Origin: Nocardia sp. NBC_00403
Lineage (GTDB): Bacteria > Actinomycetota > Actinomycetes > Mycobacteriales > Mycobacteriaceae
Length of the DNA stretch: 64,000 bases
NCBI RefSeq assembly: GCF_036046055.1
Contig: NZ_CP107939.1
Span: 2,976,001 to 3,040,000 of the forward strand
Reading direction: 5' to 3'
Below, piece by piece: positions 25,428 through 49,446 of the stretch. The notes beneath the pieces were generated by a model. That model had not been told where the DNA came from and ran no database searches. It saw only the letters and a list, made by a program, of their open reading frames with translations. A program made the position numbers and the translations under genes. How positions within the stretch are numbered: position 1 is the stretch's first letter; each line of letters begins with the position of its first letter.

Positions 25428-25441
25428 TAGGCTGTGCGCCG
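25428..25441 (+). promoter_or_regulatory. ndk -10 element, leaderless start
   Basis: TAGGCT at 25428-25433 lies 7 bases before the GTG at 25441, and a TTGAAT -35-like hexamer is at 25403-25408. No ribosome-binding site is seen, which suggests a leaderless mRNA. Confidence 0.45.
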
Positions 25442-25857
25442 TGACTGAGCAGACGTTGGTACTCATCAAGCCGGACGGCGTGGCCCGTGGCCTGGTCGGC
25501 GAGGTGCTGGCCCGGATCGAGCGCAAGGGGCTGAAGATCGCCGCCCTGGAGCTGAAGCAGGTTTCCGAAGAGGTGGCCCGCGGCCACTACGCCGAGCACG
25601 CCGAGAAGCCGTTCTTCGGCTCCTTGATCGAGTTCATCACCTCCGGCCCGGTCGTCGCGGCCATCCTGGAGGGCCCACGCGCCATCGCGGCATTCCGGCA
25701 GATCGCCGGCGGCACCGATCCGGTCGAGAAGGCCGTGCCCGGCAGCATTCGCGGTGACCTTGCCCTGGAGACCCAGGAGAACCTGGTCCACGGCTCCGAT
25801 TCGCCGGAATCGGCCAAGCGCGAGATTGCCCTCTGGTTCCCCGAGTTCCCGGCCTGA
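25441..25857 (+). CDS. ndk: Nucleoside diphosphate kinase
   Basis: A 138-residue enzyme of normal length that transfers the gamma phosphate of ATP to nucleoside diphosphates. It begins [20 protein letters not shown]; the active-site His117 is in [16 protein letters not shown], and Arg104 in GSIRGDLA is conserved. The GTG at 25441 is the family start; the open frame extends to 25396 without support. It is probably leaderless. The order folC-DUF4233-ndk-rne is that of mycobacteria. It is a useful reference for the divergent relative at 44702-45658 in the same window. Confidence 0.97.
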
Positions 25858-35649: not shown

Positions 35650-36020
35650 CGCGGCACCCTCGTTTCGATGGCCCGCAACGCGGCGGCATTCGCGGCGTCG
35701 GCCTCCTCGAGCAGTCCGCCGCTGATCAGGAACGCCTCCTTCATCCGGTAGGCGGCCTCGATGTAGTGGTCGAGTAGTGCGGCGGCGTCGCGGGCCTTGT
35801 GGCTGAAACCGGCCTGGAGCTGCTGAGCGGAGACGAACCCGCCGAAGCCCTGTGCTTCGGACGCGGCTTCGAGGCGTTGTTGCAGATAGATCAGTCGATC
35901 GGCCTGATCGTCGTACATCTCGGCACAGCGCCGTGCCGCGGCCGGATCGAACTTGACTGTTCCTGCCTGTGCCTGCTGCTTGAACCGGGCGATTTCGGCT
36001 CGGCTGGTCTCGATCGTCAT
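35646..36020 (-). CDS. PE/WXG100-like ESX partner protein
   Basis: A 124-residue helical-hairpin protein. It contains a GFGGFVSAQQLQAGFSHKA turn, typical of Nocardia ESX-associated proteins, and near the C-terminus the YRMKE sequence fits the YxxxD/E type VII export signal. It probably forms a heterodimer with the PPE-like protein, whose start overlaps its stop. ATG 36020 has AGGGG upstream; GTG 36026 is the alternative. The EspG gene ends 83 bases upstream. The family call rests on these motifs and on context. Confidence 0.7.
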   Translation of the reverse strand: MTIETSRAEIARFKQQAQAGTVKFDPAAARRCAEMYDDQADRLIYLQQRLEAASEAQGFGGFVSAQQLQAGFSHKARDAAALLDHYIEAAYRMKEAFLISGGLLEEADAANAAALRAIETRVPR

Positions 36021-36103
36021 GCGCACCCCTGAGATCGGTCGGTCCGACCCAGACTAACCGGAAGCCAAGTCCCCGGTCAGTAATAGTTACCCGTCGGCGC
36101 TAG

Positions 36104-36814
36104 TCATCCGGCCTGCGCTGGAACGCGTTTCTGCAGCTGAGCGGCGAGTTGGTCGGCCGAAGCGGGCACAACATGCACGGTCGAACCCGCCTTGATCAGG
36201 TAGCGCCCGTCGCCTTCGACATCGATCCAGGTGTAGTGGATCGGGGGCGCCGGTTCCGCCCGATCCAGCCGTGCCTCGATCCGGATGTGTCCCTCCGCGG
36301 TGTGCGGCTTCAGCAACAGCCTGCGGATCGGCGGCGCGGCCGGTCGGTGCGCGACTAACTCTTCGTCGCGGATGGTGTCGGCAGGTGCGGCTCTGGCCGG
36401 TTCCCGCCCCGGCGGGGTCTTCGGCAGCAGCGCCGCGATCCTGGCGCCGAGTTTGGCGCTGTGCCCGATCGAGATGCGCACTCGGCCACCGAAATCCGGG
36501 CTGGTGCCCGGCTCCTGCAGAGCGAGCACGGCATGGTCGAAGATCGCACCCGCCAACAATCGGATCTCGGTGCCGGGGCGGTGCGCCCCACCGATCGCCA
36601 CTATCCGCGTGTGCGGTTGGGCCAGGATCCGCAGACACGCGGTCAGGTCCGGATCGCTGCCGGACGGCAGTCGCTCGTCCAGCCGGGCGCGCAACGCATC
36701 GGCGTCACGCTCCGTGCGCGGTGTCTCGAGGATTCGGATGGGGTAGGGATGGCGATCTACCTTGGTTTCCTGCCAGACATGAGCGAACTCATCCGGGGTG
36801 AATGTCCAACCCAC
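36104..36814 (-). CDS. EspG-family ESX chaperone
   Basis: A 236-residue protein with the EspG fold pattern: an N-terminal GWTFTPDEFAHVWQE, a central VAIGGAHRPGTEIRLLAGAI strand region, and the C-terminal YTWIDVEGDGRYLI. EspG proteins bind the tip of PPE proteins in the cytosol and deliver PE-PPE pairs to their ESX machine. The position directly before PE-like and PPE-like genes supports this. GTG 36814 is the start; its ribosome-binding site is weak. No ESX core genes (eccB/C/D) lie in the window, so the module must use a system encoded elsewhere. Confidence 0.75.
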   Translation of the reverse strand: MGWTFTPDEFAHVWQETKVDRHPYPIRILETPRTERDADALRARLDERLPSGSDPDLTACLRILAQPHTRIVAIGGAHRPGTEIRLLAGAIFDHAVLALQEPGTSPDFGGRVRISIGHSAKLGARIAALLPKTPPGREPARAAPADTIRDEELVAHRPAAPPIRRLLLKPHTAEGHIRIEARLDRAEPAPPIHYTWIDVEGDGRYLIKAGSTVHVVPASADQLAAQLQKRVPAQAG

Positions 36815-37020: not shown

Positions 37021-39759
37021 ATGGGAGACACCTTGCAGGTACTTGGACCGTGGACCGATACAGCGACGATCGCCGCGCTAGCGGGAGGTAAAGCGCGCGG
37101 ATTGCACAGCTTGCACACCAGTGGTTTCCGCGTGCCGGAATGGGTCGTGCTGGGTATCGACGCGTTCGAGCAGGTGCTGCACGCGGGCGACCTCACCGAG
37201 GAGCTGACGGCTTTTCTCGCCATCAACGACCTGGAAAGGGCGTTGGCGGCGGGGGCAGCGCTGCGCACGCAGGTCGCCGCCGCGGCGCTGCCGCCGACGG
37301 TCCTCGCGTTGATCATCGACGCCTACGACCGGCTCGACGGCGGCTCGATCGCCGTGCGCTCCTCGGTGGCCGCTGAAGACGGCCCCAGCCACTCCTACGC
37401 GGGCCAATTCGACTCGTTCCTGAACGTCAACGGCCTCGACGCGGTGACATCCCGGGTGCGGGCGTGCTGGGCGTCGGCGTTCTCCGAGCGGTCCATCCGC
37501 TACGCCTTCGCGCACGAGCTGCCGCCTACCGGCGCTGCTGCCGTTGTCCTGCAGCGATTGATCTCCGCGCGGACCAGCGGCGTGATGTTCACCGCGAACC
37601 CGATCACCGGCGCGGCGGAGGAGTTGGTGATCAGTGCGGTGTACGGGCTCGGTGAAGGCCTCGTATCGGGCGCGGTGGACGCCGACTCGGTGATCGTCGA
37701 CAAATCCTCCGGCGCGGTGCTGGAAACGGTGCTGGGGGACAAGGAGCGGTCCTACACACCCACCGGTGACCAGGGCGTCGCGGTTGATGAGGTGGATCAG
37801 GAGCGTCGCAGCCGTGCCGCGCTGTCGGATGCCGAGCTCATCGAGGTGGTCGAACTGGGGCGCAAGCTGGAGGCCGACCTCGGCGCGCCGCAGGACGTCG
37901 AGTGGGCGATCGACGACGACGGGCTCTGGTTGCTGCAGACACGACCGATCACCACCGCTGTGCGCGACACCTCCCGGTCCGGTGACGCGCTGTTGCGCGG
38001 CGCCGGTGAGGTCCTCGAAGACGACGAGCAGCGGATCTGGGACAACTCCAACATCATCGAGAGTTTCAGTGGCATCACCTCGCCGTTGACGTTCACCACG
38101 GCGGCCGACATCTACGGCCGGGTCTATCACGGTTACGCGAAATCGTTGCGGGTGCCCGATGAGCAGTTGCGCCAGACCGATCGCTGGACTCCGGTGCTGC
38201 TGGGCTACTTTCACGGCCGCGTCTACTACAACCTCCTGCACTGGTACCGGATGGTTGGCATCGCGCCCGGCTACCCGTTGAACAGGAAGGTGCTGGAGGC
38301 GGCGCTCGGCGTCGACGAACCGCTCGCCGACGAGCTCGCGAAGACGCTGCGGCCGTTCACTTTCCGAACGCAATTCGCCCGGCTTCGCTCCAGGACCGTC
38401 ACCACGGTGACCTATCTGCGGCGGCTGTTGGGAATCGACGATATGGTCGAGCAATTCATGACCGAGTTCTATCGCGTCTACGACGAATACGACGCCATGG
38501 ACTACACGACCCTGTCCGGTGAACAGGCCTACGCGTCCTACCGCACCGTCGACCGTGACCTGGTGCAGCGCTGGGGCCCGCTGATGGTGCTGGACGCGAT
38601 CCTGCTGACCTGCACCGGATTGATGTTCCTGCTGACGAAGCTGCTGCTGCCCAAGGCGCCGGAGTGGTTCCTGTACGCCGTGGTGGGCCCGGGTGCCGAT
38701 GTCGAATCGGCCGAGCCCGCGCGCGCGATGACCGAGCTGGCCCAGTTCGTGCGCGCCGAGCCGGAACTCGTGGCATTGGTCAATTCGACTCCGCCGGAAC
38801 AGATCTACCCGGCACTGCGCGGATCGGAGCGCACCGAATTCCTGGCCCACGTCGATGCCTACATCGATCGCTACGGCTATCGCAGTCTCGACGAGCTGAA
38901 GCTGGAGACGCCCGATCTGCGGGAAGACCCGGCCAGCCTGTTCGTCATGCTGCGCAGCGCCATCGGGCGGGTAGGAGACGCCGCACAGCACAGCCGCAGC
39001 GCCGAGGCCGACGACTATCTCGACGCGCACCTGCACGGCTTGCGCCGTCGGATCTATGAACGGTTGCGCGCCAAGGTGAATCGTTGCGCCGCGCACCGCG
39101 AACGGCTGCGCTTCTGCCGGACGCGAGCCTTCGGCATGGTGAAGCGGATGATCCGGGTGATGGGCCGCGACCTGGTCGAGCGCGAGGTCATCGACGAGTT
39201 CGGCGACGTGTTCTTCCTGACCGTGCAGGAATTGCGCGGCTGTTATGAAGGCGCGCAGACCGAGACGCTGCGCGATCTGGTAGCGGCGCGAAAAGCCCAG
39301 CGCGCCAGGGACGGTGAGTTGGTCGCGCCGGCTCGCTTCGTCACAGCGGGTCCGACCTTCGGGCGGGCCGAGCTTGCGGCTCAGGGCTGGGTGCCGGTCA
39401 CCGACACTCCGGCCGCAACGGTCGGAACAGTGCTGCCCGGAACGCCTTCGGCGTCGGGAATTGTCGAGGGCACGGCTATCGTGGTCGACGAGCCCCGCGA
39501 CGTCGCAGGCGGCATCCTGGTGGCCTATCGAACCGACCCCGGCTGGGTGGCTGCGCTGCCTTCGGCGTCGGCGCTGGTGATCGAGCGCGGCAGCCCCCTC
39601 ACGCACGTCGCGATCGTGGCGCGGGAATTAGGAGTCCCCACCGTGGTGCAAGTCAAGGACCTCACGAAAAAGATACGGTCCAGTATGCGGATTCGGGTCG
39701 ATGGAACCAATGGGACGGTTACCGTGCTGTCCGAAGGAGACCTCCGTGATGGAGCATGA
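37021..39759 (+). CDS. PEP-synthase/rifampicin-phosphotransferase-like dikinase
   Basis: A 912-residue protein, first gene of a coupled biosynthetic operon. It has an N-terminal ATP-grasp PPDK_N domain (~1-315, with GGKARGLHSLHTSGFRVPEW, SIAVRSSVAAEDG and TSGVMFTANPITG), a unique ~500-residue middle region, and a C-terminal swivelling phosphohistidine domain (~800-905) with GSPLTHVAIVARELGVPTVV, where His near 862 is the expected phosphocarrier. This order is that of rifampicin phosphotransferases, which move the ATP beta-phosphate to an alcohol, rather than PEP synthases, which end in a PEP barrel. The acceptor here is unknown. GAGGGGG lies just before ATG 37021, and it overlaps the next gene by 11 bases. 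Confidence 0.8.
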   Translation: MGDTLQVLGPWTDTATIAALAGGKARGLHSLHTSGFRVPEWVVLGIDAFEQVLHAGDLTEELTAFLAINDLERALAAGAALRTQVAAAALPPTVLALIIDAYDRLDGGSIAVRSSVAAEDGPSHSYAGQFDSFLNVNGLDAVTSRVRACWASAFSERSIRYAFAHELPPTGAAAVVLQRLISARTSGVMFTANPITGAAEELVISAVYGLGEGLVSGAVDADSVIVDKSSGAVLETVLGDKERSYTPTGDQGVAVDEVDQERRSRAALSDAELIEVVELGRKLEADLGAPQDVEWAIDDDGLWLLQTRPITTAVRDTSRSGDALLRGAGEVLEDDEQRIWDNSNIIESFSGITSPLTFTTAADIYGRVYHGYAKSLRVPDEQLRQTDRWTPVLLGYFHGRVYYNLLHWYRMVGIAPGYPLNRKVLEAALGVDEPLADELAKTLRPFTFRTQFARLRSRTVTTVTYLRRLLGIDDMVEQFMTEFYRVYDEYDAMDYTTLSGEQAYASYRTVDRDLVQRWGPLMVLDAILLTCTGLMFLLTKLLLPKAPEWFLYAVVGPGADVESAEPARAMTELAQFVRAEPELVALVNSTPPEQIYPALRGSERTEFLAHVDAYIDRYGYRSLDELKLETPDLREDPASLFVMLRSAIGRVGDAAQHSRSAEADDYLDAHLHGLRRRIYERLRAKVNRCAAHRERLRFCRTRAFGMVKRMIRVMGRDLVEREVIDEFGDVFFLTVQELRGCYEGAQTETLRDLVAARKAQRARDGELVAPARFVTAGPTFGRAELAAQGWVPVTDTPAATVGTVLPGTPSASGIVEGTAIVVDEPRDVAGGILVAYRTDPGWVAALPSASALVIERGSPLTHVAIVARELGVPTVVQVKDLTKKIRSSMRIRVDGTNGTVTVLSEGDLRDGA

Positions 39760-42700
39760 CAAATATGTTGCGGCAGTGCGTAATTGGCTTGCCGAGCCCG
39801 CAGTGGACGCCGGGGTATACCTGGCCGACGAGGCCGACGGCTGGACCTATCGCAGCTATCGCGACCTCGCCGACACGACCTGGTCCATCGCCGCCCTGAT
39901 GCGGGCACACGGCATGGGCAGCGGCGACGGCGCGTGTGTGATCATGCCGACCGGATTCCCTTGTGCCGCAGCGTTCTACGCCGTGTGGGCCTGCGGCGGG
40001 GTCTTCACGCCGGTCGCCCCGCCCATGTTCGGCGACCTCGACCAGATCGTCGCCCACATCGCGGCGATCCTGGCGCAGGCCCGCCCGCGACTGGTGGTGA
40101 CCTCGACGGAGTTCGAGCAACTCGTCCGCAGGGCGGCGATCGAAGCGGGCCGCATCGACGAGCCACTGGTGATCAATGCTCAGACCCTCGGGCCACCACC
40201 CGCGGTGCGTGAGTTCGGCGAGCCGGACGAGTGCGCGCTGCTGCAATTCACCTCCGGCTCCACCGGCACGCCGCGCGGCGTGCGTGTCAGCTGGCAGAAC
40301 CTGGCCAACAACATCGCGATGATCTCCACCCTCGTCGACTGGCGGCCCGGCGAGGCCATGGTCTCGTGGTTGCCGCTCTATCACGACATGGGCCTGGTCG
40401 GCGCCTTCCTCACCACCGTGACCAATCAGGGCGACCTGTACCTGATGCGACCCGACCAGTTCGTCCGCGACCCGGTGCGGTGGCTGCGTGCGATGACCCA
40501 TGCCCAGCACTCGCCGTCACCCTCGTTCGCGCTCGGCTATGTGGCGCATCGGGTGCCGCAGGAGGACATCGCCGAGCTCGACCTCTCCGGCTGGCGCACG
40601 CTCGCCGTCGGCTCCGAACCCGTCGAGGTCGCCGATCTACAGTCGTTTGCGAATCTCGCAGGCAAACAAGGCTTCTCGACCAAGGCGTACACGCTGGCCT
40701 ATGGGCTCGCGGAGGCAACGCTGATGGTGACCTCGTCGGCACGCAACCGCCCTGTCACCGCGCTGCGCCTCGACAACCCGAGTCTGCGCTTCGGGTCCAG
40801 GATCACGATCCTGGACGAGCAACTGCTCGACGACACCCGTCGGGTCGAAGGCGCGGGATGGATTACCGGCCTGGGCTATTCGACGCCGGAGTCGACGGTC
40901 ACGGTGGTCGACGAGGACGGTCGCGAGCTCCCCGACGGCACCCTGGGCGAGATGGTCGTAGTCGGCGATTCGGTGGCGCTCGGGTATTCGGTGACGGATT
41001 CCGGCGAGCCCGCAGCGGGTTCGTCCACCCGGATCACCGACGGCAGGCTCTACACCGGTGACGCGGGATTTCTGTATCGCGGTGAAGTTTTCGTGCTCGG
41101 CCGGATGGGATCGAGCCTGAAGGTGCGCGGTCGGTCGGTGTTCATGGAGGACATCGAATCCCGGGTCGCTGAGGAGACCGGGATCACCAAAGGCAAACTT
41201 GCCGCGGTCACCATCAGCGAGGCGGGTGCGCAGGGCATCGCCTTGTTCGCGGAATCTGCGCCGGGTGACTGGATCTCCGAGGCACGCAGCATTATTCGCG
41301 GTGAGCTCGGCCCCGCGCAGTCCGTCACCATCGTCACCGGACCGCGCGGCACCATTCGCCGCACCTCCAGCGGCAAACCGCGCCGCCGCCATATGTGGCA
41401 GCTGTTTCGCGATGGAGTCCTCGACGGCGCCATCGCCCACGAGACAGACACCACCGGCGCCGGCGGGGCAGACAACATCGAAGCCGGCGATGGCCGCGCC
41501 GCTCAGGACATCGCACCGGAGCCGACGCTGGCTGCGGAGCGGGTGCGGCAGCTGCTCGAGCGAGCCTTGGAAACCGTAGTGGTACCACGGGATTCGGCGG
41601 TGCTGTTCGAAGGGTCGCTGGCCGAGGGGTTCGGCAACGAGGGATCCGATGTGGACTTCCTCGTCCTCGCGCCCGGCGACGAGGAGATGCCGACACTGCC
41701 GACGGTGCTGTTCATCGATGGGCGTCGAGTCGAGGTGCGCACCCGGTCGCAGGCACAGCTGCGCAGACAGTTGGCGCAGGTCGCGGCGGCGGGAAACCCC
41801 ACAGAACTCGACGAGGACCTGCTCAACCGGTGTCAGCGATTCCTGCGGGCGACGGTGGTCCGGTCGGGCACTCCCGACGTAGCCGAATTGCGCTCGCTGC
41901 TGCCCTATTCCGGATTCACGGAGCTGATGGCGCACTGGTGGACCGCGCGGGCCACCCAGGCATTGCGATTCGCTGTGGCACTGCGCGCGCTGGGAGCGCA
42001 CGCCGAAGCGGGTGGTTGGGCGCGCGATGGTCTTTTGCAGGCGATGAAGGGGTGGGCGGCGCGGCACGGCGAAAGCTATCTGGAGACCAAATGGCTGCCG
42101 CAGCAGCTGGACCGGATCGGGCGCGACGACCTCATCGATCGCTACCGGGACACCAGTGATCCCGCCGGCTGGGCGTTCGACGACCACGCGCGGAAGGTCG
42201 GCGACGCGGAACCAGGTTCCGGAGCTGAGCACCATGCCGTCCCAGTGTCGGTAGCTGAAGCCGATCGGCCTGGCGACGCGCAAGCCGGAGCAGCGGCCGA
42301 ACAGCTGACCTGGCAAAAGGTGTGGGAACTGGCCGCCGCACTCGGCGTGCCCGCGGTGGCGGACGATACGCATCAGATCTTGTTCGCGCGCCGCCCCCGC
42401 GTCACCACCTGGACGATCGGTGGGCGCGTGCATGTCGTGCGCGACGATCGGGATGTCTTCGTGCTCTCGGACCCGGCCGCGCGGGTCTGGCGGTCGGTGG
42501 TGTTCCGGCATTCGGTGCGCGACGTGCTCGCCCGCGCCCAGTCCGACATCGCCGCCGAGCTGTCCGAGTTCATCCGGCTCGGTTTCGTCGGATTGCAATG
42601 GCGCGGCGGCGAACTCATCGAACCCGCCTTGGCAATGTGCAAGCCGGTGCAGCCCTACACGCCGGTGCCGAGTACGAGCGCCCCTGCGCTCGGCGTGACC

Positions 42701-43315
42701 GGAGCCGCGGGAGACGATCCGATCGTCACCCTTTCTGCACTGCCCGCGACCAGATTCACCGAATGCGCACTGAATCTGGTGTGGTCCAACATCGTTCTGG
42801 AGAATGCCAGGGAGGATCTGGCCGGTGCGGTGAAGAACTCCCAGGGCGCAGTCGCCGACATCGCCGCCCACCGTCTGATCGCGATGGCTGTTCGGGTCGT
42901 GCTGTCCGCCTTCGGTATTCATCCACTGCCCGCCGACGTGGCACCCGCCGAAACCGTGCTGCGCATACTTCCATCGCACGCGTCGGGTCGCGATCAGCTG
43001 CTGACACAGCTGAAATCGGCGCAACAGGTGTGTTTCTCGGACATCCTCCGCACGAGCGGTGACATCAGCGCTGGCCTTGCGGTCCTCGATGATTTCGTCG
43101 CCCTGGTGCGGCGGATCGCCGGCGGCTCGGAGTCCGCGACCGGTTTCCCCGCCTCGTTCGATTCGCGCGAGCAATGGCGTCGGACCCTGGCGATCGGTTA
43201 CGACTGGCTGCGCCTGGCCGGTTACCTGAACACCGACCTGCCGCTCGACGAGGCTCGCGATCTGCTGACCTCCGGTGGCCACCAGCCTCATCTACGGGAA
43301 GGAGAGTCGGCATGA
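39749..43315 (+). CDS. Fatty-acyl-AMP ligase fused to nucleotidyltransferase and PqqD-like domains
   Basis: An 1188-residue multidomain enzyme. Residues ~1-560 are an adenylation domain of the FAAL type, with LLQFTSGSTGTPRGVRVSW, AYGLAEATLMVTS and the catalytic Lys in RTSSGKPRRRHM. Around 600-720 is a Pol-beta-type nucleotidyltransferase, with FEGSLAEGFGNEGSDVDFLV (GS...SDxD) and a further acidic residue in RRVEVRT. A helical region follows, then a PqqD-like segment at ~885-960 (DVFVLSDPAARVWRSVVF, then EFIRLGFVGL) and another helical domain. The ligase should activate an acid for the following carrier protein; the transferase suggests nucleotidylation of substrate or product. ATG 39749 (or GTG 39746) follows AAGGAG. 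I know no described fusion of this kind. Confidence 0.78.
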   Translation: MEHDKYVAAVRNWLAEPAVDAGVYLADEADGWTYRSYRDLADTTWSIAALMRAHGMGSGDGACVIMPTGFPCAAAFYAVWACGGVFTPVAPPMFGDLDQIVAHIAAILAQARPRLVVTSTEFEQLVRRAAIEAGRIDEPLVINAQTLGPPPAVREFGEPDECALLQFTSGSTGTPRGVRVSWQNLANNIAMISTLVDWRPGEAMVSWLPLYHDMGLVGAFLTTVTNQGDLYLMRPDQFVRDPVRWLRAMTHAQHSPSPSFALGYVAHRVPQEDIAELDLSGWRTLAVGSEPVEVADLQSFANLAGKQGFSTKAYTLAYGLAEATLMVTSSARNRPVTALRLDNPSLRFGSRITILDEQLLDDTRRVEGAGWITGLGYSTPESTVTVVDEDGRELPDGTLGEMVVVGDSVALGYSVTDSGEPAAGSSTRITDGRLYTGDAGFLYRGEVFVLGRMGSSLKVRGRSVFMEDIESRVAEETGITKGKLAAVTISEAGAQGIALFAESAPGDWISEARSIIRGELGPAQSVTIVTGPRGTIRRTSSGKPRRRHMWQLFRDGVLDGAIAHETDTTGAGGADNIEAGDGRAAQDIAPEPTLAAERVRQLLERALETVVVPRDSAVLFEGSLAEGFGNEGSDVDFLVLAPGDEEMPTLPTVLFIDGRRVEVRTRSQAQLRRQLAQVAAAGNPTELDEDLLNRCQRFLRATVVRSGTPDVAELRSLLPYSGFTELMAHWWTARATQALRFAVALRALGAHAEAGGWARDGLLQAMKGWAARHGESYLETKWLPQQLDRIGRDDLIDRYRDTSDPAGWAFDDHARKVGDAEPGSGAEHHAVPVSVAEADRPGDAQAGAAAEQLTWQKVWELAAALGVPAVADDTHQILFARRPRVTTWTIGGRVHVVRDDRDVFVLSDPAARVWRSVVFRHSVRDVLARAQSDIAAELSEFIRLGFVGLQWRGGELIEPALAMCKPVQPYTPVPSTSAPALGVTGAAGDDPIVTLSALPATRFTECALNLVWSNIVLENAREDLAGAVKNSQGAVADIAAHRLIAMAVRVVLSAFGIHPLPADVAPAETVLRILPSHASGRDQLLTQLKSAQQVCFSDILRTSGDISAGLAVLDDFVALVRRIAGGSESATGFPASFDSREQWRRTLAIGYDWLRLAGYLNTDLPLDEARDLLTSGGHQPHLREGESA

Positions 43316-43578
43316 CCGCTGTAGCCGATACCGCGATCGCCGAGCAGGTCCGCCGCCTCGTCCTCGCGATGGCGCCACGACCATCGGCGACCGACGACGA
43401 GAAGCGGCTGGTCGAAGACCTCGGCTTCGATTCTCTGCGCCTGATGGAACTCACGGTGGTGCTGGAGCGCTCCTTCGACCTGCCGCGCTATCGCCCGGAG
43501 CAATTGATCGGTGTGCGTCGCGTCGGGCAAGTGATCGCCCTCGTCTCGGGGACGCTGGCCGAAGGCAGCCCATCATGA
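43312..43578 (+). CDS. Acyl carrier protein
   Basis: An 88-residue carrier domain. The phosphopantetheine site is in DLGFDSLRLMELTVVLE, with the Ser of GFDSL as the attachment residue. ATG 43312 overlaps the ligase stop (ATGA) and has GGGAAGGAGA upstream. It probably receives the acyl group from the upstream AMP ligase and presents it to the SDR and AfsA-like enzymes encoded next. No phosphopantetheinyl transferase is nearby. Confidence 0.88.
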   Translation: MTAVADTAIAEQVRRLVLAMAPRPSATDDEKRLVEDLGFDSLRLMELTVVLERSFDLPRYRPEQLIGVRRVGQVIALVSGTLAEGSPS

Positions 43579-44705
43579 GCGAGCAGGCCAGGGCTGACCG
43601 CCAGCGCGGTGCGATCACGAGCGCGCGCGACACCGTGCTGGTCACCGGCGCGACCGGATTGGTCGGTGCCGAAGTCGTGGCGCGGCTGGCCGCCGCCGGC
43701 CGACCGGTGGCTGCTGTGCTGCACAGCAATTCGAGCATTGTCCGCAACGACGGCACAGTGCTGGAGGCGGGCACGCCGGTGGCGGGCGATATTCGGGCGC
43801 GCGGTTTCGGCATGTCGGAGCGCGACACCGCCGACCTGGCCGAGCGCGTCGGCGCCATCGTGCACTGTGCGGCGACCACCGCGTTCGACGCGCGAGATTC
43901 CGATTACGAGGAACTGAATGTGCGCGGTACCGTGCACGCCATCGCGCTGGCCAGGCAGTGGGATGTTCCGCTTGTGCATGTCAGCACCGCGTATGTGTGC
44001 GGACGGCGCGGCGGCGTGGTTACCGAGGACGAGCTCGACGCGGGCCAGTCATTCGGGAATGGATACGAGGACAGCAAGTTTCGTGCCGAACAGTTGGTGC
44101 ACGCGGCAGGTGAGCAGGGCCTGCGCTGGGCGATCGTACGGCCCGGCATCGTGACCGGCGTCGGCGACTCGGGCGCGATCCGCGAATACAAGAACCTCTA
44201 CACCGTCGTGAAACTCATGGTGGAAGGCAAACTCCGGGCACTGCCCGGCCGCTACGACGCGACCCTGTCGCTGGCCCCGGTGGATCACGTCGCCGACGTC
44301 ATCGCCGCGGCCGTCCTGGATTTCGACTCCGCGCACGGTCGCACCTTCCACGCGCTCGGCCGAGACACTTTGTCGTTGCGCGAGGTATCGGATGTGCTCG
44401 CCGAGTATCCCTCCTTCGAGGTGGCCACGTTCGTGCCGGAAGCGACCTTTGCCGAGGACGACCTGGACCCGGTAGAACGGGAGTACTACCGGCGCATCGG
44501 CTCGCTCTACACCAGTTACTTCCAGCGGCGCTTGATATTCGACACCGCCCATGCCGAGGTACTACTGGGCAAGCCGTCGCCACCGAGCGGCAAGGACTAC
44601 CTGCGTCTCCTACTCGACTACTGCCTGGAATCGGGATACCTGGGCGTTCCGCTGCCATCGATCGAAGATGTATTGGCGAGCAACGACTTCGGAGGCGGGC
44701 GATGA
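43575..44705 (+). CDS. Thioester-reductase-like extended SDR
   Basis: A 376-residue NAD(P)-dependent enzyme of the extended SDR/thioester reductase group. It has VLVTGATGLVGAEVVARL for cofactor binding, a VHCAATTAFDA strand, STAYVCGRRGG and the active-site Tyr/Lys in YEDSKFRAEQL, followed by VRPGIVTGVGDSG. Relatives release carrier-bound acyl chains as aldehydes or alcohols. ATG 43575 overlaps the carrier protein stop (ATGA), supporting the carrier-bound thioester as substrate; a plain ketoreductase role cannot be excluded. Confidence 0.78.
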   Translation: MSEQARADRQRGAITSARDTVLVTGATGLVGAEVVARLAAAGRPVAAVLHSNSSIVRNDGTVLEAGTPVAGDIRARGFGMSERDTADLAERVGAIVHCAATTAFDARDSDYEELNVRGTVHAIALARQWDVPLVHVSTAYVCGRRGGVVTEDELDAGQSFGNGYEDSKFRAEQLVHAAGEQGLRWAIVRPGIVTGVGDSGAIREYKNLYTVVKLMVEGKLRALPGRYDATLSLAPVDHVADVIAAAVLDFDSAHGRTFHALGRDTLSLREVSDVLAEYPSFEVATFVPEATFAEDDLDPVEREYYRRIGSLYTSYFQRRLIFDTAHAEVLLGKPSPPSGKDYLRLLLDYCLESGYLGVPLPSIEDVLASNDFGGGR

Positions 44706-45658
44706 GCAGTGGATCACCGGGTGAGCGCGACGGGATCGTCGGCGATTCGCTGCGTGAGCTGCTGGCGGGTTCGACGCCCTCGGCGGAGAAAGCCGGTGTC
44801 TACCTCGACGACACCTACGTGCAGGAGTCGGTCGACCAGCTCGACCGGTTGGGTGTCGACGCGGCGAAATTCGCCATGCAACATTCGCTGCTGCTGCTCA
44901 AACCCGATGCGATCCTCGCCCGCGCCGTCGAACCGACGCTGCAATGGCTGGCCGACAACGGTTTTCGTGTGGTCGGCGCCTACCGCGTCCCGGTAGATCG
45001 ACACCTGGCCCGTGCGCTGTGGTACTTCGCATGGAATATCGCCTCACCCGAACGCAGGCGGCTCGCGGATCTGCTGGTCGGCATCTCGGATGTGCTTGTC
45101 CTGGTGGTGCACGGTCCCGACGGGGAGCTGCCGGTCTCGGTGCGGCTCACCGAGGCCAAAGGCGCGACCGATCCACGTAAACGCCGGCCCGGCGAATTGC
45201 GGTATCTGCTCGGCAGGCACAACTATCTACTCAATCTGGTGCACTCACCGGACGATCCCGCCGATGTGCTGCGCGAGCTCGCCATCTACTTCGACGAGCG
45301 GACGCGGGCGGCGGTGATCGCGCAGGCAGGCGCGGGTGTCGACCGCTCGGCCGATGCCGTCGCGATCGCTCATGACCTGTACACCCACGCTCCTGCCCGC
45401 AGCTTCGATCGTACCGACGCACTCGCACGACTGTTGAGCGATCTCGACCGCGCAGGTTTCACGCTCCCGCCGGAGCTCGACCTCGAATCCGACACGGGCT
45501 GCGCGCAATTGCTGTACTCGGCATGGGCCGCTGACCAGGATCTGGATCCGTGGTCGGTGATCGTGCTCGGCTCATACGTTCTTCCCATGCGGACCGGCAC
45601 TCAGCCGCAGACCTTGCGGCCCGTGTCCGCGACAGATTGGTTGGAGGGTCGATCGTGA
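44702..45658 (+). CDS. Divergent nucleoside-diphosphate-kinase-like protein
   Basis: A 318-residue protein whose residues ~60-205 match the NDK fold. SLLLLKPDAILARAVEP corresponds to the NDK start, KGATDPRKRRPGELRYLL to [18 protein letters not shown], and NLVHSPDDPADVLRELAIYF to the active-site block, keeping the catalytic His (His181) and the Arg. It differs from true NDK in a ~60-residue N-terminal extension and a ~110-residue C-terminal extension without a known fold. A normal ndk is at 25441-25857, so this copy is specialised, perhaps to phosphorylate a pathway phosphate. ATG 44702 overlaps the SDR stop. Confidence 0.72.
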   Translation: MSSGSPGERDGIVGDSLRELLAGSTPSAEKAGVYLDDTYVQESVDQLDRLGVDAAKFAMQHSLLLLKPDAILARAVEPTLQWLADNGFRVVGAYRVPVDRHLARALWYFAWNIASPERRRLADLLVGISDVLVLVVHGPDGELPVSVRLTEAKGATDPRKRRPGELRYLLGRHNYLLNLVHSPDDPADVLRELAIYFDERTRAAVIAQAGAGVDRSADAVAIAHDLYTHAPARSFDRTDALARLLSDLDRAGFTLPPELDLESDTGCAQLLYSAWAADQDLDPWSVIVLGSYVLPMRTGTQPQTLRPVSATDWLEGRS

Positions 45659-46647
45659 CCACAGACGCAGCACCGGTACGGGCAGCAAGCCATGTCCGCA
45701 CCATCTCCCGCGAACTAGCGCATCGCTGCGCGGTCTCGGAGGTCTTCGTGACCTCGCTGGATACCGCGGCACCGGACGAGTTCGTCGCGGGCGCACAGCT
45801 ACCGAGAATGCACGCCTACTACGGCGACCACCACGGTTCGCTCGCGATGCGACACGATCCGCTGCTGGTGATGGAGGCGGGCAGGCAGGCGGCGATCGCG
45901 CTGACCCATGAGTTCTACGGTGTACCGCCCGAAATGGCGTTCGTTGTCAGGACTTTCAACGGCACCGGCTCCGATACCACGGCCTGGGAAGTCCGCACCG
46001 CGCCCGCCGACCTCGTGATGCGGGTACGGGTGCCACAGCAGCACCGCCGCGGTGGCGTGCTGCACGGCCTCGATATGGTGCTGGATATCGAGTGTGCGGG
46101 CGAGCCGATGCTGACCGTCGACGGTTCCTTCTCCTGGGTCACCTCGAGACAGTGGTCGGGCCTGCGCTCCGCGTTCCGGGACAGTCTGGGGCTCGGGCCT
46201 TTCCACGGCGCCTCGGCACTGACCGAACGCGCCGTGCCTGCCGCGGTGGGCCGGGAGAACTGGCGCAACGTCGTCATCGGTCCGCCGCGCCGGGACGGCG
46301 CAACCGCGCGGGCCGCGTTGGTCGCCGACCTCGGCCACCCGTTCTTGTTCGATCATCAGCTCGACCATGTCCCCGGTAGTCTGCTCATCGAAGCGTGCCG
46401 CCAGACCGCACTATCGATGATCGTCGACGAATTGCCGCGGTTGGAGTGTGTAGCAAGTACTTTCGATCGATTCGTCGAACTCGACCTGCCGGCCGAATGC
46501 GTGGCAGAGATCGTCGAACAGGGTGCGGGCACCGTGGTGATCCACTGCGAGATCCACCAGGCCGGTGCCGTCGCGGCCCAAGTAGATCTCGAATTCGCGG
46601 AGGACACACTGGATCCCGAGGCCGAACCGGACTCGGGAATCGTCTGA
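45655..46647 (+). CDS. AfsA/ScbA-family butyrolactone synthase-like protein
   Basis: A 330-residue protein with two AfsA hot-dog repeats. The first has RMHAYYGDHHG and DPLLVMEAGRQAAIALTHEF (~45-85), the second GHPFLFDHQLDHVPGSLLIE followed by ACRQTALS (~222-250); both carry the conserved Glu and Arg of the family. AfsA condenses a beta-ketoacyl carrier thioester with DHAP to start A-factor-type gamma-butyrolactones. GTG 45655 overlaps the NDK-like stop (GTGA). No gamma-butyrolactone receptor (ArpA-type TetR) is adjacent, so the product may be a structural lipid or antibiotic part rather than a signal. Confidence 0.85.
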   Translation: MTTDAAPVRAASHVRTISRELAHRCAVSEVFVTSLDTAAPDEFVAGAQLPRMHAYYGDHHGSLAMRHDPLLVMEAGRQAAIALTHEFYGVPPEMAFVVRTFNGTGSDTTAWEVRTAPADLVMRVRVPQQHRRGGVLHGLDMVLDIECAGEPMLTVDGSFSWVTSRQWSGLRSAFRDSLGLGPFHGASALTERAVPAAVGRENWRNVVIGPPRRDGATARAALVADLGHPFLFDHQLDHVPGSLLIEACRQTALSMIVDELPRLECVASTFDRFVELDLPAECVAEIVEQGAGTVVIHCEIHQAGAVAAQVDLEFAEDTLDPEAEPDSGIV

Positions 46648-46661
46648 TGGACAGGAGCCCG

Positions 46662-47279
46662 ATGGGCAACGATCTGCTGACCACCACCAGGGCCTTCCGG
46701 CGCCGCCTCGACCTCACCAGGCCGGTCGCCAGGCAGGACCTGCTCGCCTGCCTCGACGTCGCGGTGCACGCCCCGAGCGGCACCAACCGGCAGCCGTGGC
46801 GTTTCCTCGTGGTCGAGGATTTCGATACCAAACAGCAGATCGCCGAGTACTACCGAAAAGGCTTTGCCGCCTACCTGTCCGCCCGCACTCCACGCCCCGA
46901 TCAACTCGGCGACCTCGCCTCCGGCCGCTACCTCGCCGCCCACCTGCACGAGGTCCCGGCGCTGGTGGTCGTCTGCTCGCTCGGTCGCCCACCCGCGAAC
47001 GCCGCAGCCCTCCAACTCGCCAGCTTCTACGGCTCCATCTACCCGGCGGTCTGGAACTTCATGCTGGCCCTGCACGACCGCGGCCTCGGATCCACCATGA
47101 CCACCGCCCACCTGGTATATGAGCAAGAGATCGCCGACCTCCTCGGCATCCCCTTCGACCAGATAACCCAGGTCGCTATGCTCCCGGTGGCCCACCTGCT
47201 GCCCGGTACCAGAAGTCGAGGCCCGCGCCGCATTCCGGCCGCCGAGGTGACGATGTGGAACCGCTGGAGCGAGGAGTGA
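46662..47279 (+). CDS. Nitroreductase-family oxidoreductase
   Basis: A 205-residue FMN-dependent enzyme of the nitroreductase superfamily. It has TTTRAFRRRLDLTRPV and CLDVAVHAPSGTNRQPWRFL at the start, where the Ser/Asn/Arg contact FMN, and a C-terminal GIPFDQITQVAMLPVAHLLP. Members reduce nitro groups, enones or iodotyrosines; reduction of a butenolide or other C=C in the same pathway is an attractive guess. ATG 46662 has AGGAG 4 bases upstream. ATG 46647 overlaps the AfsA stop (TGATG) and may be used instead. Confidence 0.83.
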   Translation: MGNDLLTTTRAFRRRLDLTRPVARQDLLACLDVAVHAPSGTNRQPWRFLVVEDFDTKQQIAEYYRKGFAAYLSARTPRPDQLGDLASGRYLAAHLHEVPALVVVCSLGRPPANAAALQLASFYGSIYPAVWNFMLALHDRGLGSTMTTAHLVYEQEIADLLGIPFDQITQVAMLPVAHLLPGTRSRGPRRIPAAEVTMWNRWSEE

Positions 47280-47325
47280 GGGGCGTAACGGTGGGTGCGG
47301 CCAGGCGCGAGTATCGGGGCGCGGA

Positions 47326-48267
47326 ATGAGCAGTGCAGCAGCAACAGCGTCGACTCCGCGCGTGCTCGGATCCCTCGCGCGCATCGCCCGATTCACCGTG
47401 GTGATGTACAAGCCGCACTACCTGCTGTACGGCGTGCTCTGGGTGCTCGCACTCGAAGGCACGGCAGCTCTTGTCTCCCAGCCCGATTCGTCATGGCATC
47501 CGACCGCGTCCACTGTTGTCCGCATCGTCGTGGTCGCCTTCGTCCTGCTGTACCTGCGCATGGTCGACGAACAGAAGGACCTCGACTACGACAGGGTGCA
47601 CAACCCCGACCGCCCCCTGGTGACCGGCGCGATCAGCGCGAACGAACTGCGCAGCGCGATGGCGGTCATCGCGGTGGGCGCCATCGCCGCCAGCCTGACA
47701 CTCTCGATCGGTTCGGCGGTACTGATCGCCGCCGTACTCGCCTACGGTCTTGTCCTCTGGGGTCTGGAGAATCTTTCGACAACCGTGCGCACCGACATCG
47801 TGCTGAACCTGGCTATCACCTACCCGGTCCAGCTACTCGTCACCGCGTACGTCGTCGTTTCTGCGATCGGAACCGGCGAAGTCCGATCCCGTTGGCAGGC
47901 AGCGGCCGTCGCGATCATCTTCGCCGGTGCTTTCCTCCAGTTCGAATTCGCCCGCAAGACATCCAAGTCGCCGCGCCCCGGCGAGATGTACTACTCGAAT
48001 GCCTTGGGTGCCAACGGCAGCGCGACTGCTGCGCTGGTGTGCGCCGCCATAGCGGTTTTCGGCGACCTCGCCCTGGTTCGGCCGTGGACCTACTCCGGGC
48101 CGCAAGCTCTGATCGCCTGGATTCCTGTGGTGCTCTTACTGATTCCAGCCACGGCAGCATCGAAGTTCCGACGCGCGAGCACACCGGACTACCCGGTCTT
48201 ACCCGCGGTCCTGTTCATTCTTGCCCTCTACCTCGTGCTGATCGTTCAGGCGCTGGTCCTGACCTGA
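47326..48267 (+). CDS. UbiA-family prenyltransferase-like membrane protein
   Basis: A 313-residue protein with about 8-9 hydrophobic helices. The Asp-rich cytosolic loop after helix 2, RMVDEQKDLDYDRVHNPDRP followed by LVTG, fits the UbiA motif (DxxxDxxxD...RPL) that binds diphosphate through Mg2+. The second motif is less canonical (FEFARKTSKSPRPGEMYYSN). UbiA enzymes transfer an isoprenyl or related group from its diphosphate to an acceptor. It starts 46 bases after the nitroreductase gene and ends the operon. The donor may be isoprenoid or, speculatively, a diphosphate made by the two phosphotransferases encoded upstream. Confidence 0.8.
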   Translation: MSSAAATASTPRVLGSLARIARFTVVMYKPHYLLYGVLWVLALEGTAALVSQPDSSWHPTASTVVRIVVVAFVLLYLRMVDEQKDLDYDRVHNPDRPLVTGAISANELRSAMAVIAVGAIAASLTLSIGSAVLIAAVLAYGLVLWGLENLSTTVRTDIVLNLAITYPVQLLVTAYVVVSAIGTGEVRSRWQAAAVAIIFAGAFLQFEFARKTSKSPRPGEMYYSNALGANGSATAALVCAAIAVFGDLALVRPWTYSGPQALIAWIPVVLLLIPATAASKFRRASTPDYPVLPAVLFILALYLVLIVQALVLT

Positions 48268-48335: not shown

Positions 48336-48353
48336 AGGTGCCACTCGGCACCT
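48336..48353. terminator. Hairpin between UbiA-like and methyltransferase genes
   Basis: AGGTGCC-ACTC-GGCACCT forms a 7-bp stem overlapping the methyltransferase stop, between convergent genes. No T tract follows, so its efficiency is uncertain. Confidence 0.4.
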
Positions 48354-49446
48354 AACTGGGGCGCACTTCGAGGACATTGTCGGGGGCTACGGTGGGGATA
48401 CGGCGCACGAGGGTGAATCCTGAGGCGGCCAGGAAGTCTCGGTATTGGTCTTCGGTGCGTTCGCGGCCGCCTACGTTGATGAGCATTTCCAGGTCGATGA
48501 ATTTTCCCGGGTGCGGTCGATTATCTTCGGGGAGAACGAGTTCGATGAGCAGCAGCGTCGCGTCCTCGGGCATCTGCTCGCGCAGGGTGTGCAGGATCTG
48601 CTTGGCTTTGTCGTCGGACCAGTCGTGGATGATGTGTTTGAGAATGTAGGCGTCGCCGCCCTTGGGCACCGTCTCGAAGAAGGAGCCGCTTTCGACCGTG
48701 CAGCGGTCGGCGAGGCCGAGTTCGGCGAGGCGGGCGGGCGCCGACGCGACCACTTCCGGCAGATCGAACAGGATGCCGCGTGATGTCGGTGTGCGGGAGA
48801 GGATTTCGGTGAGCAGGGTGCCCTGTCCACCACCTACATCGACAATCGTGCCGTACTGGCCGAAGTCGTAGGCGGCGAACAGCGGTTCTGTCGCCAGGGT
48901 GCCGATGCTGGTCATGGCGCGGTCGAACAGTTCGCCGAGCTCGCGGTCTTTCCGCACGTAGTCGAAGAACGACATGCCGTCCAGATCCGTGCCGACGGTT
49001 TCACCGGTGCGCACCGCGTCGACCAGATGCGTCCAATGATTGCGGTGCATCGGCGAGCCGAAGAAGAGCACGGTATCGCGCAGCGAAACGCTCGTATCCC
49101 GACGCAGCGCCTGTGCCATCGGGGTGAGCGTGTATTTGCCGTCCGATCGGCGAGCGAAGATGCCGTGGCTCGTCAGAAGCTGTAGCAGGCGATGTAGCGC
49201 GTCCTCGTTCGCGCCGGTGGCGCGCGCCAACTCCGCACCGTTGCGCGGACCATCGGCAAGTGCGTCTGCCACACCGAGTGCGGCGGCCGCGTGGATCGCC
49301 TGGGTCAAGAACCCGGCAACGATCATTTCCAGCAGCGCGATATGCCCTGGCACAAGTCGCCGGTGCAGCCCCGCCATCGAATTGCGGGCGAATTCGATCA
49401 CCCGCAACAGCGCCTGCGGTGGAACTTTCGATCGGTTGGATGCCAT
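48352..49446 (-). CDS. SAM-dependent O-methyltransferase (AdoMet_MTase, class-I plant-type fold)
   Basis: A 364-residue protein with the two-domain plan of hydroxyneurosporene/acetylserotonin-type O-methyltransferases. The N-terminal winged-helix dimerisation domain (~40-120, ALGVADALADGPRNGAELAR) precedes a SAM-binding domain with TIVDVGGGQGTLLTEI and the catalytic His in LKHIIHDWSDDKA. The C-terminal ERTEDQYRDFLAASGF is also typical. It methylates a hydroxyl of an unknown small molecule. It is convergent with the biosynthetic operon and may tailor its product, but no promoter or overlap proves that. The ATG at 49446 follows GGAGG by 4-5 bases. Confidence 0.87.
   Translation of the reverse strand: MASNRSKVPPQALLRVIEFARNSMAGLHRRLVPGHIALLEMIVAGFLTQAIHAAAALGVADALADGPRNGAELARATGANEDALHRLLQLLTSHGIFARRSDGKYTLTPMAQALRRDTSVSLRDTVLFFGSPMHRNHWTHLVDAVRTGETVGTDLDGMSFFDYVRKDRELGELFDRAMTSIGTLATEPLFAAYDFGQYGTIVDVGGGQGTLLTEILSRTPTSRGILFDLPEVVASAPARLAELGLADRCTVESGSFFETVPKGGDAYILKHIIHDWSDDKAKQILHTLREQMPEDATLLLIELVLPEDNRPHPGKFIDLEMLINVGGRERTEDQYRDFLAASGFTLVRRIPTVAPDNVLEVRPS

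What the first reader, a model, noticed from the sequence alone, without database searches (positions are those of the whole stretch)
37021..48267. Undescribed-looking coupled biosynthetic operon with two phosphotransferases, AfsA and UbiA
Eight genes run in one direction with overlapping starts and stops: RPH-like dikinase, FAAL-nucleotidyltransferase fusion, carrier protein, thioester-reductase-like SDR, NDK-like protein, AfsA, nitroreductase, UbiA. Seen: motifs and overlaps. Known: FAAL loads acids on carriers, RPH transfers the ATP beta-phosphate to alcohols, NDK makes phosphoanhydrides, UbiA uses diphosphates, AfsA uses DHAP. Inference: a carrier-bound acid is reduced to an alcohol, phosphorylated once by the dikinase and again by the NDK-like protein to a diphosphate donor for the UbiA enzyme. 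Alternatively, AfsA and the nitroreductase build a butenolide or butyrolactone core. I know of no described cluster with this set.
Basis: partly seen in the sequence, partly recalled or inferred. Interest (0 to 1): 0.88.

Follow-up and report, generated by a model that had tools for sequence, protein, structure and literature searches.

The report
Conserved AfsA-UbiA biosynthesis operon in Nocardia
A tightly packed set of eight genes found in many Nocardia species probably builds a small lactone molecule joined to a fatty chain through phosphate chemistry, and its variants in other bacteria show which of the genes belong together.

Summary
In detail: eight co-directional genes at 37021-48267, six of seven junctions overlapping. 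They form one inherited system. Of 148 genomes of the genus, 68 have the UbiA gene, and all 68 also have the NDK-like and FAAL-nucleotidyltransferase genes. The operon recurs in Tsukamurella, Antrihabitans and other actinomycetes. A dikinase-UbiA-AfsA-domain triad was present in 10 of 10 more distant loci read. FAAL and carrier protein are lost together.

Best explanation (0.4, inferred): a fatty alcohol made by FAAL/carrier/reductase is turned into a diphosphate by dikinase and NDK-like protein, and UbiA joins it to an AfsA-made butyrolactone phosphate; product akin to salinipostins/cyclipostins. No reaction was tested. Salinipostin (spt) clusters are probably the nearest known kind (recalled; the papers are not held), so a gene-by-gene comparison was not possible. 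New variant of a known kind.

The parts
37021..39759 (+). PEP-synthase/RPH-type dikinase (912 aa): ATP-grasp domain 20-317, middle domain, swivel domain 830-898 with phospho-histidine candidate H862 (GSPLTH)
   Evidence: Pfam; NF004881 997 bits over cut-off 883; swivel motif alignment
39749..43315 (+). FAAL fused to a nucleotidyltransferase region (1188 aa): AMP-binding 26-413; GSLAEGFGN..SDVDF nucleotidyltransferase motif; ANT/KNTase-like fold; alpha/beta segment (PqqD-like by my reading only); HEPN-like helical domain
43312..43578 (+). acyl carrier protein (88 aa, DSL motif)
   Evidence: PP-binding 25.1 bits over cut-off 20.8
43575..44705 (+). thioester-reductase-type SDR (376 aa)
   Evidence: NAD_binding_4 148 bits; TIGR01746 136 bits, below its cut-off 213; best solved relatives MxaA and other reductase domains
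44702..45658 (+). NDK-like protein (318 aa): NDK fold 55-214 with K67, R167, N178, H181, plus helical N- and C-terminal extensions
45655..46647 (+). AfsA/ScbA-type butyrolactone synthase (330 aa, two AfsA domains); the only gene of the genome with a PF03756 match at E<=0.001
   Evidence: NF041195 206.6 bits over cut-off 200; E and R of both repeats present
46644..47279 (+). nitroreductase-family flavoprotein (211 aa), not found in 9 of 37 operon loci of the genus
47326..48267 (+). UbiA-superfamily membrane transferase (313 aa) of a distinct subfamily: first motif DEQKDxxYDR (D81, D85, D89), second Asp motif replaced by FEFARKT...YS

Best explanation
The operon makes a gamma-butyrolactone joined to a fatty chain through phosphate chemistry. 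Proposed steps, all inferred: the FAAL loads a fatty acid on the carrier protein; the SDR releases it as aldehyde/alcohol; the dikinase puts the beta-phosphate of ATP on the alcohol; the NDK-like protein adds a second phosphate. In parallel AfsA joins a 3-oxoacyl group to DHAP, the adduct closes to a butenolide phosphate and the nitroreductase reduces it. The UbiA enzyme, which keeps the first (diphosphate-binding) Asp motif, transfers the activated chain to the lactone phosphate or another oxygen. The nucleotidyltransferase region probably activates a phosphate by nucleotidyl transfer, perhaps for ring closure. Expected product: an alkyl phospho-butyrolactone of the salinipostin/cyclipostin sort. 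A chain unsaturated next to the alcohol would suit UbiA chemistry best. Shown here: families, motifs, co-occurrence, order and natural gene losses. Not shown: any reaction or product.
For: Co-inheritance in 148 genomes: UbiA and NDK-like together 68, UbiA alone 0, NDK-like alone 11, neither 69 (relatedness not corrected). Dikinase, nucleotidyltransferase region, reductase, NDK-like, AfsA and UbiA in 37 of 37 operon loci read, FAAL domain and ACP in 35 of 37, absent together in the other two. FAAL and ACP are also both absent in L169 and L213, and FAAL and nucleotidyltransferase are separate genes in L151: modules. Dikinase+NDK-like kept as a pair in 11 of 11 reduced loci, in three groups that on the NDK tree are separated by a full operon, L055 (supports 97-100). 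Dikinase with FAAL-NT/ACP/reductase but without AfsA or UbiA in L058: there it goes with the reduction branch. Dikinase+UbiA+AfsA-domain gene in 10 of 10 distant loci. UbiA profile's best solved relative is digeranylgeranylglyceryl phosphate synthase, E 6e-7 over 74 positions around the first motif: an O-alkylating enzyme on a glycerol phosphate lipid. The window's AfsA passes the ScbA/BarX equivalog cut-off.
Against: L213 has dikinase, nucleotidyltransferase, NDK-like, AfsA, nitroreductase and UbiA but no reductase, FAAL or ACP, although its genome holds a second, complete operon (L034) that could supply them. The nine type B clusters join dikinase, UbiA and an AfsA-domain gene without NDK-like or nucleotidyltransferase matches; the reductase profile finds there at most weak SDR matches (20-44 bits in L189, L197, L198, the L198 one an epimerase-type SDR). 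So there the dikinase may act on the lactone side, and in 5 of 7 type B AfsA proteins aligned the Glu/Arg pair is lost. AfsA of L154 (163.5 bits) and L213 (198.3) fall below the equivalog cut-off of 200. Saturated alkyl diphosphates do not ionise like allylic ones, so known UbiA chemistry fits best only if the chain is allylic. The second Asp motif of UbiA is missing in all 17 rows aligned. The role of the nucleotidyltransferase region is a guess. The UbiA match to DGGGP synthase covers only the common first motif.
Confidence: 0.4

Rival explanations
1. The dikinase works on the lactone, not on a fatty alcohol: like PEP synthase it phosphorylates an enol (the 3-oxoacyl-butyrolactone enol) or its hydroxymethyl group, the NDK-like protein adds a second phosphate there, and UbiA uses an ordinary prenyl diphosphate of the cell.
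For: Best model for the dikinase is PEP synthase. Type B clusters and L213 combine dikinase, UbiA and an AfsA-domain gene without FAAL/ACP/thioester reductase of this kind (L192 has an unrelated-looking ACP with KAS III); L200 has a polyprenyl-synthetase-like gene between dikinase and UbiA. Salinipostins and cyclipostins are cyclic enol phosphates (review passages, PMC6681047).
Against: L058 has the dikinase with FAAL-NT/ACP/reductase and no AfsA or UbiA in the 20 kb read. Among the type A loci read the reductase is missing only in L213. Type B dikinases are distant (about 30-32% identical; 553 and 512 bits to NF004881 for the two tested, below its cut-off of 883).
Confidence: 0.25
2. It is simply a salinipostin-type (spt) operon as already described for Salinispora and other actinomycetes; nothing new but the host. 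(This overlaps with the best explanation in chemistry; it differs in novelty.)
For: Recalled, not read: spt is a nine-gene operon with an AfsA homologue (spt9), and spt-like clusters were reported across actinomycete genera. Of these papers only the citation of one (Creamer et al. 2021) was seen. Compound-class logic fits.
Against: The spt gene list could not be compared.
Confidence: 0.3
3. An ordinary autoregulator locus: AfsA makes a free butyrolactone signal and the other genes serve a separate lipid pathway that happens to be co-transcribed.
For: Canonical AfsA; two TetR genes just under the ScbR-type cut-off (147.6 and 134 of 150 bits) elsewhere in the genome.
Against: None of the ScbR-model matches listed for the genome lies within the window (150 of 243 candidates scored); the two good candidates lie over 1 Mb away. 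AfsA is not separated from dikinase, NDK-like and UbiA in 37 of 37 operon loci, while of 29 AfsA loci from a class sample the 24 that are not of this type show no dikinase, UbiA or NDK-like match within their roughly 1.5-kb flanks.
Confidence: 0.1

Closest known systems
Salinipostin (spt) gene cluster and the cyclipostin/cyclophostin compounds
   Same: An AfsA-type lactone core with alkyl phosphate chemistry is what this gene set predicts; the compounds are bicyclic enol phosphates with alkyl phosphate esters, thought to be related to A-factor (passages of PMC6681047 and PMC11095149)
   Different: Gene-by-gene identity not tested: the spt papers are not held. Whether spt has NDK-like, FAAL-NT and UbiA genes is not known to me from any call
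A-factor/ScbA/GblA butyrolactone clusters (S. griseus, S. coelicolor, Rhodococcus jostii)
   Same: AfsA with two PF03756 domains; a reductase for the ring double bond is part of one proposed route (PMC5735094 passages)
   Different: Dikinase, NDK-like, nucleotidyltransferase and UbiA partners; no ScbR-type receptor match in the window; a nitroreductase-family protein instead of the named reductase
RPH, PEP synthase and prodigiosin ligases (PigC, RedH)
   Same: ATP-grasp plus swivel domain with phospho-histidine candidate
   Different: Acceptor unknown; degenerate copies without ATP-grasp domain or histidine occur in reduced loci
Digeranylgeranylglyceryl phosphate synthase and other UbiA enzymes
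   Same: First Asp-rich motif
   Different: Second Asp-rich motif replaced by FEFARKT...YS in the 17 rows aligned

Membership tests
AfsA/ScbA butyrolactone synthase | two AfsA domains, ScbA/BarX equivalog cut-off | tested here: met
   206.6 bits, cut-off 200
AfsA/ScbA butyrolactone synthase | conserved Glu and Arg of the repeats (role recalled from ScbA work) | tested here: met
   present in the window protein and in the eight other type A rows aligned
A-factor-type autoregulator system | ArpA/ScbR receptor gene beside the synthase | tested here: not met
   no ScbR-model match listed within the window; nearest good candidates over 1 Mb away and below cut-off (150 of 243 candidates scored)
Salinipostin spt cluster | homology of each gene to Salinispora spt1-9 | not testable with these tools
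   papers not held; no named Salinispora sequence reached
Salinipostin spt cluster | alkyl enol phosphotriester product | not testable with these tools
   needs metabolite analysis
PEP-synthase/RPH dikinase | ATP-grasp and swivel domains with phospho-histidine | tested here: met
   domains and residue present; phosphorylation itself not tested
Nucleoside diphosphate kinase | NDK fold with catalytic histidine, lysine and asparagine | tested here: met
Nucleoside diphosphate kinase | equivalog score of a true NDK | tested here: not met
   41.5 of 155 bits; an ordinary-sized NDK gene is at 25441-25857
UbiA prenyltransferase superfamily | first Asp-rich motif | tested here: met
   D81, D85, D89 invariant in 17 rows
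UbiA prenyltransferase superfamily | second Asp-rich motif | tested here: not met
   E207, A209, R210, K211 invariant instead; window protein below Pfam cut-off
Fatty acyl-AMP ligase | FAAL equivalog/subfamily cut-off | tested here: inconclusive
   FAAL models are among the best matches (PRK09192 276 of 600 bits) but none of the 25 models shown of 94 reaches its cut-off

The most novel reading that the evidence does not exclude
A dikinase/NDK-like relay that turns an ACP-derived fatty alcohol into an alkyl diphosphate, so that a UbiA enzyme uses a non-isoprenoid diphosphate to alkylate a DHAP-derived lactone phosphate; and, in several Nocardia lineages, the same two proteins kept as an apparently catalytically dead pair with a new role.
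Probability: 0.25. Interest if true: 0.82.

Novelty: new variant of a known kind. Interest (0 to 1): 0.6.

Why it matters
If right, it shows a bacterial way to make lipid diphosphates without isoprenoid enzymes and to graft them on a butyrolactone, a class with reported antimalarial activity (salinipostins) and lipase inhibition (cyclipostins) (passage of PMC11095149). The natural deletions give a ready-made dissection of the pathway: which genes are core, which are exchangeable, and which two stay together after the rest is lost. The degenerate dikinase/NDK-like pair under continued selection would be an unusual case of enzymes turned into a non-catalytic pair.

Tried and rejected
Chance neighbourhood: rejected. 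Reading as a classical signal locus: made less likely by gene linkage and lack of an adjacent receptor match. Search for a description in print: ten searches listed no paper on such an operon in Nocardia as far as titles and abstract starts show; two listings were cut (30 of 42 papers, 3 of 46), and the library lacks most subscription journals, so this is no proof of absence. Naming Salinispora spt genes from protein searches led nowhere. Actinacidiphila locus L129 was a weak match (27% over 91 residues), not pursued beyond an ORF list. NDK-like genes on Streptomyces and Enterobacter plasmids: 10 records matched; the three loci read out (L175, L176, L177) lie in other gene surroundings. Four NDK-like hits outside the window's family (L170-L173) have no operon partner in the 20 kb read, by the operon profiles. 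VIA-align listed no PqqD-like match for the alpha/beta segment of the fusion; the segment was not folded alone. PHROGs gave no match for the fusion.
Full report
OBSERVATION. The window lies at 2976001-3040000 of a single 8.7-Mb contig. That the genus is Nocardia is inferred from named relatives of the same proteins. Eight + strand genes fill 37021-48267. Six of seven junctions overlap by 4 or 11 nt; UbiA starts 46 nt after the nitroreductase. Two need words: the dikinase is best matched by a PEP synthase model (NF004881, 997 bits, cut-off 883), and the NDK-like protein is far below true NDK models (41.5 of 155 bits). An ordinary-sized NDK gene lies at 25441-25857 (PF00334 179 bits).

CONSERVATION IN THE GENUS. 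Of 148 genomes searched, 81 have a FAAL-NT match at E<=1e-60, 79 an NDK-like match at 1e-30, 68 a UbiA match at 1e-20. All 68 UbiA genomes are in both other sets, and 11 NDK genomes lack UbiA (Fisher p 6e-31, not corrected for relatedness). Of the 81 FAAL-NT genomes 13 lack UbiA: nine are listed with FAAL-part matches only, one (G122) with a FAAL-NT paralogue, and three (G024, G026, G033) fall below the end of the printed match list. I fetched 40 stretches; three (L058, L069, L070) are paralogous or partial and are left out of the next count. In the other 37, dikinase, nucleotidyltransferase region, reductase, NDK-like, AfsA and UbiA are present in 37, FAAL domain and ACP in 35, nitroreductase in 28. 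The named collection gave 57 loci: 54 Nocardia, two Tsukamurella, one weak Actinacidiphila match. Of the 54, 49 carry the operon (some cut by contig ends) and five have only dikinase and NDK-like gene as full genes. An EspG gene lies near the dikinase in 28 of the 37 loci.

OTHER GENERA. The same order is found in Tsukamurella (L127, L128; in L127 several of the genes come out in pieces in my ORF call), Antrihabitans (L150-L152; genus from contig lengths), two genomes of another genus of the family (L154, L155) and one genome of a group I take for Streptomyces (L169, without FAAL and ACP). In L151 FAAL and nucleotidyltransferase are separate genes. N. iowensis (name from the contig length) has a second copy, L213, without FAAL, ACP and reductase.

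WIDER TRIAD. UbiA-subfamily searches hit 11 of 394 genomes of the class and 7 of 150 of one other family. Outside the window's family that is 10 distinct genomes; nine were read (one, G579, was not), plus S. clavuligerus plasmid pSCL4. In all 10 loci a dikinase and an AfsA-domain gene lie in the same cluster. Nine of the 10 (type B; one of them, L198, only 11.7 kb long) show no nucleotidyltransferase or NDK-like match by these profiles; instead single clusters have ICMT-like, P450, nitroreductase, zinc-type dehydrogenase, SDR, KAS III/ACP, DUF6182 or polyprenyl-synthetase-like genes. Of seven type B AfsA proteins aligned, five lack the Glu/Arg pair (L191, L197, L198, L199, L200; not L174 or L192; L189 and L190 were not aligned), so they may not be lactone synthases. 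L191 and L199 score 90 and 84 bits to the ScbA/BarX model, L192 200.7 (cut-off 200). Conversely, in a PF03756 search 25 of 197 genomes of the class matched, and of 29 new flanked AfsA loci five are type A. The other 24 show no dikinase, UbiA or NDK-like match in their flanks of about 1.5 kb around the matched domain. One of these 24 (L248) is the L192 cluster, whose UbiA and dikinase lie further off; two are second entries of a gene already counted (L246, L249).

NATURAL DISSECTION. FAAL and ACP are absent together in four loci (L067, L068, L169, L213). A sister cluster (L058) has PKS and NRPS genes, FAAL-NT, ACP, reductase, transporter genes, a dikinase (NF004881, 976 bits) and two genes with weak thymidylate-kinase-like matches (26.5 and 21.1 bits, cut-off 27), but no AfsA, UbiA or NDK-like gene in the 20 kb read. 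L070 is similar in its FAAL-NT/ACP/reductase part, with an acyl-CoA dehydrogenase gene next to the reductase. This ties the dikinase to the reduction branch in at least one setting. The 11 NDK+/UbiA- genomes have a dikinase gene beside the NDK-like gene in 11 of 11, and no other operon gene was found at the locus (L203 and L209 are short stretches). N. brevicatena (L102) still shows remnants of FAAL-NT, reductase and UbiA on the two sides of the NDK-like gene. On an NDK tree the reduced loci form three groups (each supported 100) and the full operon L055 falls inside them (97 with its neighbours), so three separate reductions are the simplest reading; regain by transfer in L055 would make fewer. 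The tree has an oddity: the Tsukamurella sequence L128 falls among Nocardia.

DEGENERATE PAIR. In the NDK-like partner K67 is lost in 7 of 11, N178 in 8 of 11, H181 in 0 of 11. Pairwise dN/dS stays at 0.11-0.26 for the NDK-like gene (10 pairs) and 0.27-0.43 for the dikinase (10 pairs), against 0.15-0.30 (6 pairs) and 0.12-0.26 (4 pairs) in complete operons (pairs share members and are not independent; one of the 10, L102-L210, has intact swivel histidines). So the NDK-like protein is as constrained as before and the dikinase less so, yet still constrained. Either a new, non-catalytic role or slow decay could explain it. One reduced NDK-like gene (G030) carries an in-frame stop near its end.

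MECHANISM. The branch logic in Best explanation follows from these modules. What speaks most against a simple fatty-alcohol route is type B and L213. The weak UbiA match to DGGGP synthase fits an oxygen of a glycerol-phosphate-derived acceptor, which AfsA would supply, but it covers only the common first motif.

KNOWN SYSTEMS. GblA/AfsA condenses a glycerol derivative with a fatty acid derivative, and in one proposed route a reductase then acts on the ring double bond (PMC5735094, passages). Homologues of AfsA and ArpA had been noted from genomes for Frankia and Nocardia, respectively, so for Nocardia only a receptor homologue (PMC4748050, passages). Salinipostins and cyclipostins are enol phosphates that may share the origin of A-factor (PMC6681047, passages). 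Kudo et al. 2020 and Creamer et al. 2021 on spt are recalled only; their text was not available.

VERDICT. A real, conserved operon, undescribed as far as the ten searches show, whose nearest known kind is probably the salinipostin type. Interest 0.6.

Noticed in passing
L201, L203-L212, L121, L124-L126 (Nocardia); Reduced loci keep only the dikinase and the NDK-like gene, most with catalytic residues and six with the whole ATP-grasp domain lost, yet with low dN/dS.
   Followed up: partly
34090-36814, - strand: PPE-like protein with long proline-rich repeats, PE-like protein and EspG lie divergently beside the operon; an EspG gene is near the dikinase in 28 of 37 operon loci and in 10 of 11 reduced loci.
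   Followed up: partly
48352-49446, - strand: O-methyltransferase gene convergent with UbiA; a similar gene lies in 21 of the 37 operon stretches.
   Followed up: no
   Followed up: partly
L175, L176, L177 (Streptomyces and Enterobacter plasmids): NDK-like proteins of the same broad type sit in other, unrelated-looking gene neighbourhoods, one on an Enterobacter plasmid.
   Followed up: no
L174 7499-12864 (S. clavuligerus pSCL4): AfsA-domain, ICMT-like, dikinase and UbiA genes in a row on the giant linear plasmid.
   Followed up: partly
   Followed up: partly
window:39749-43315, residues about 877-952: Alpha/beta segment that reads like a PqqD/RRE domain by its predicted secondary structure; no library match was obtained.
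   Followed up: no
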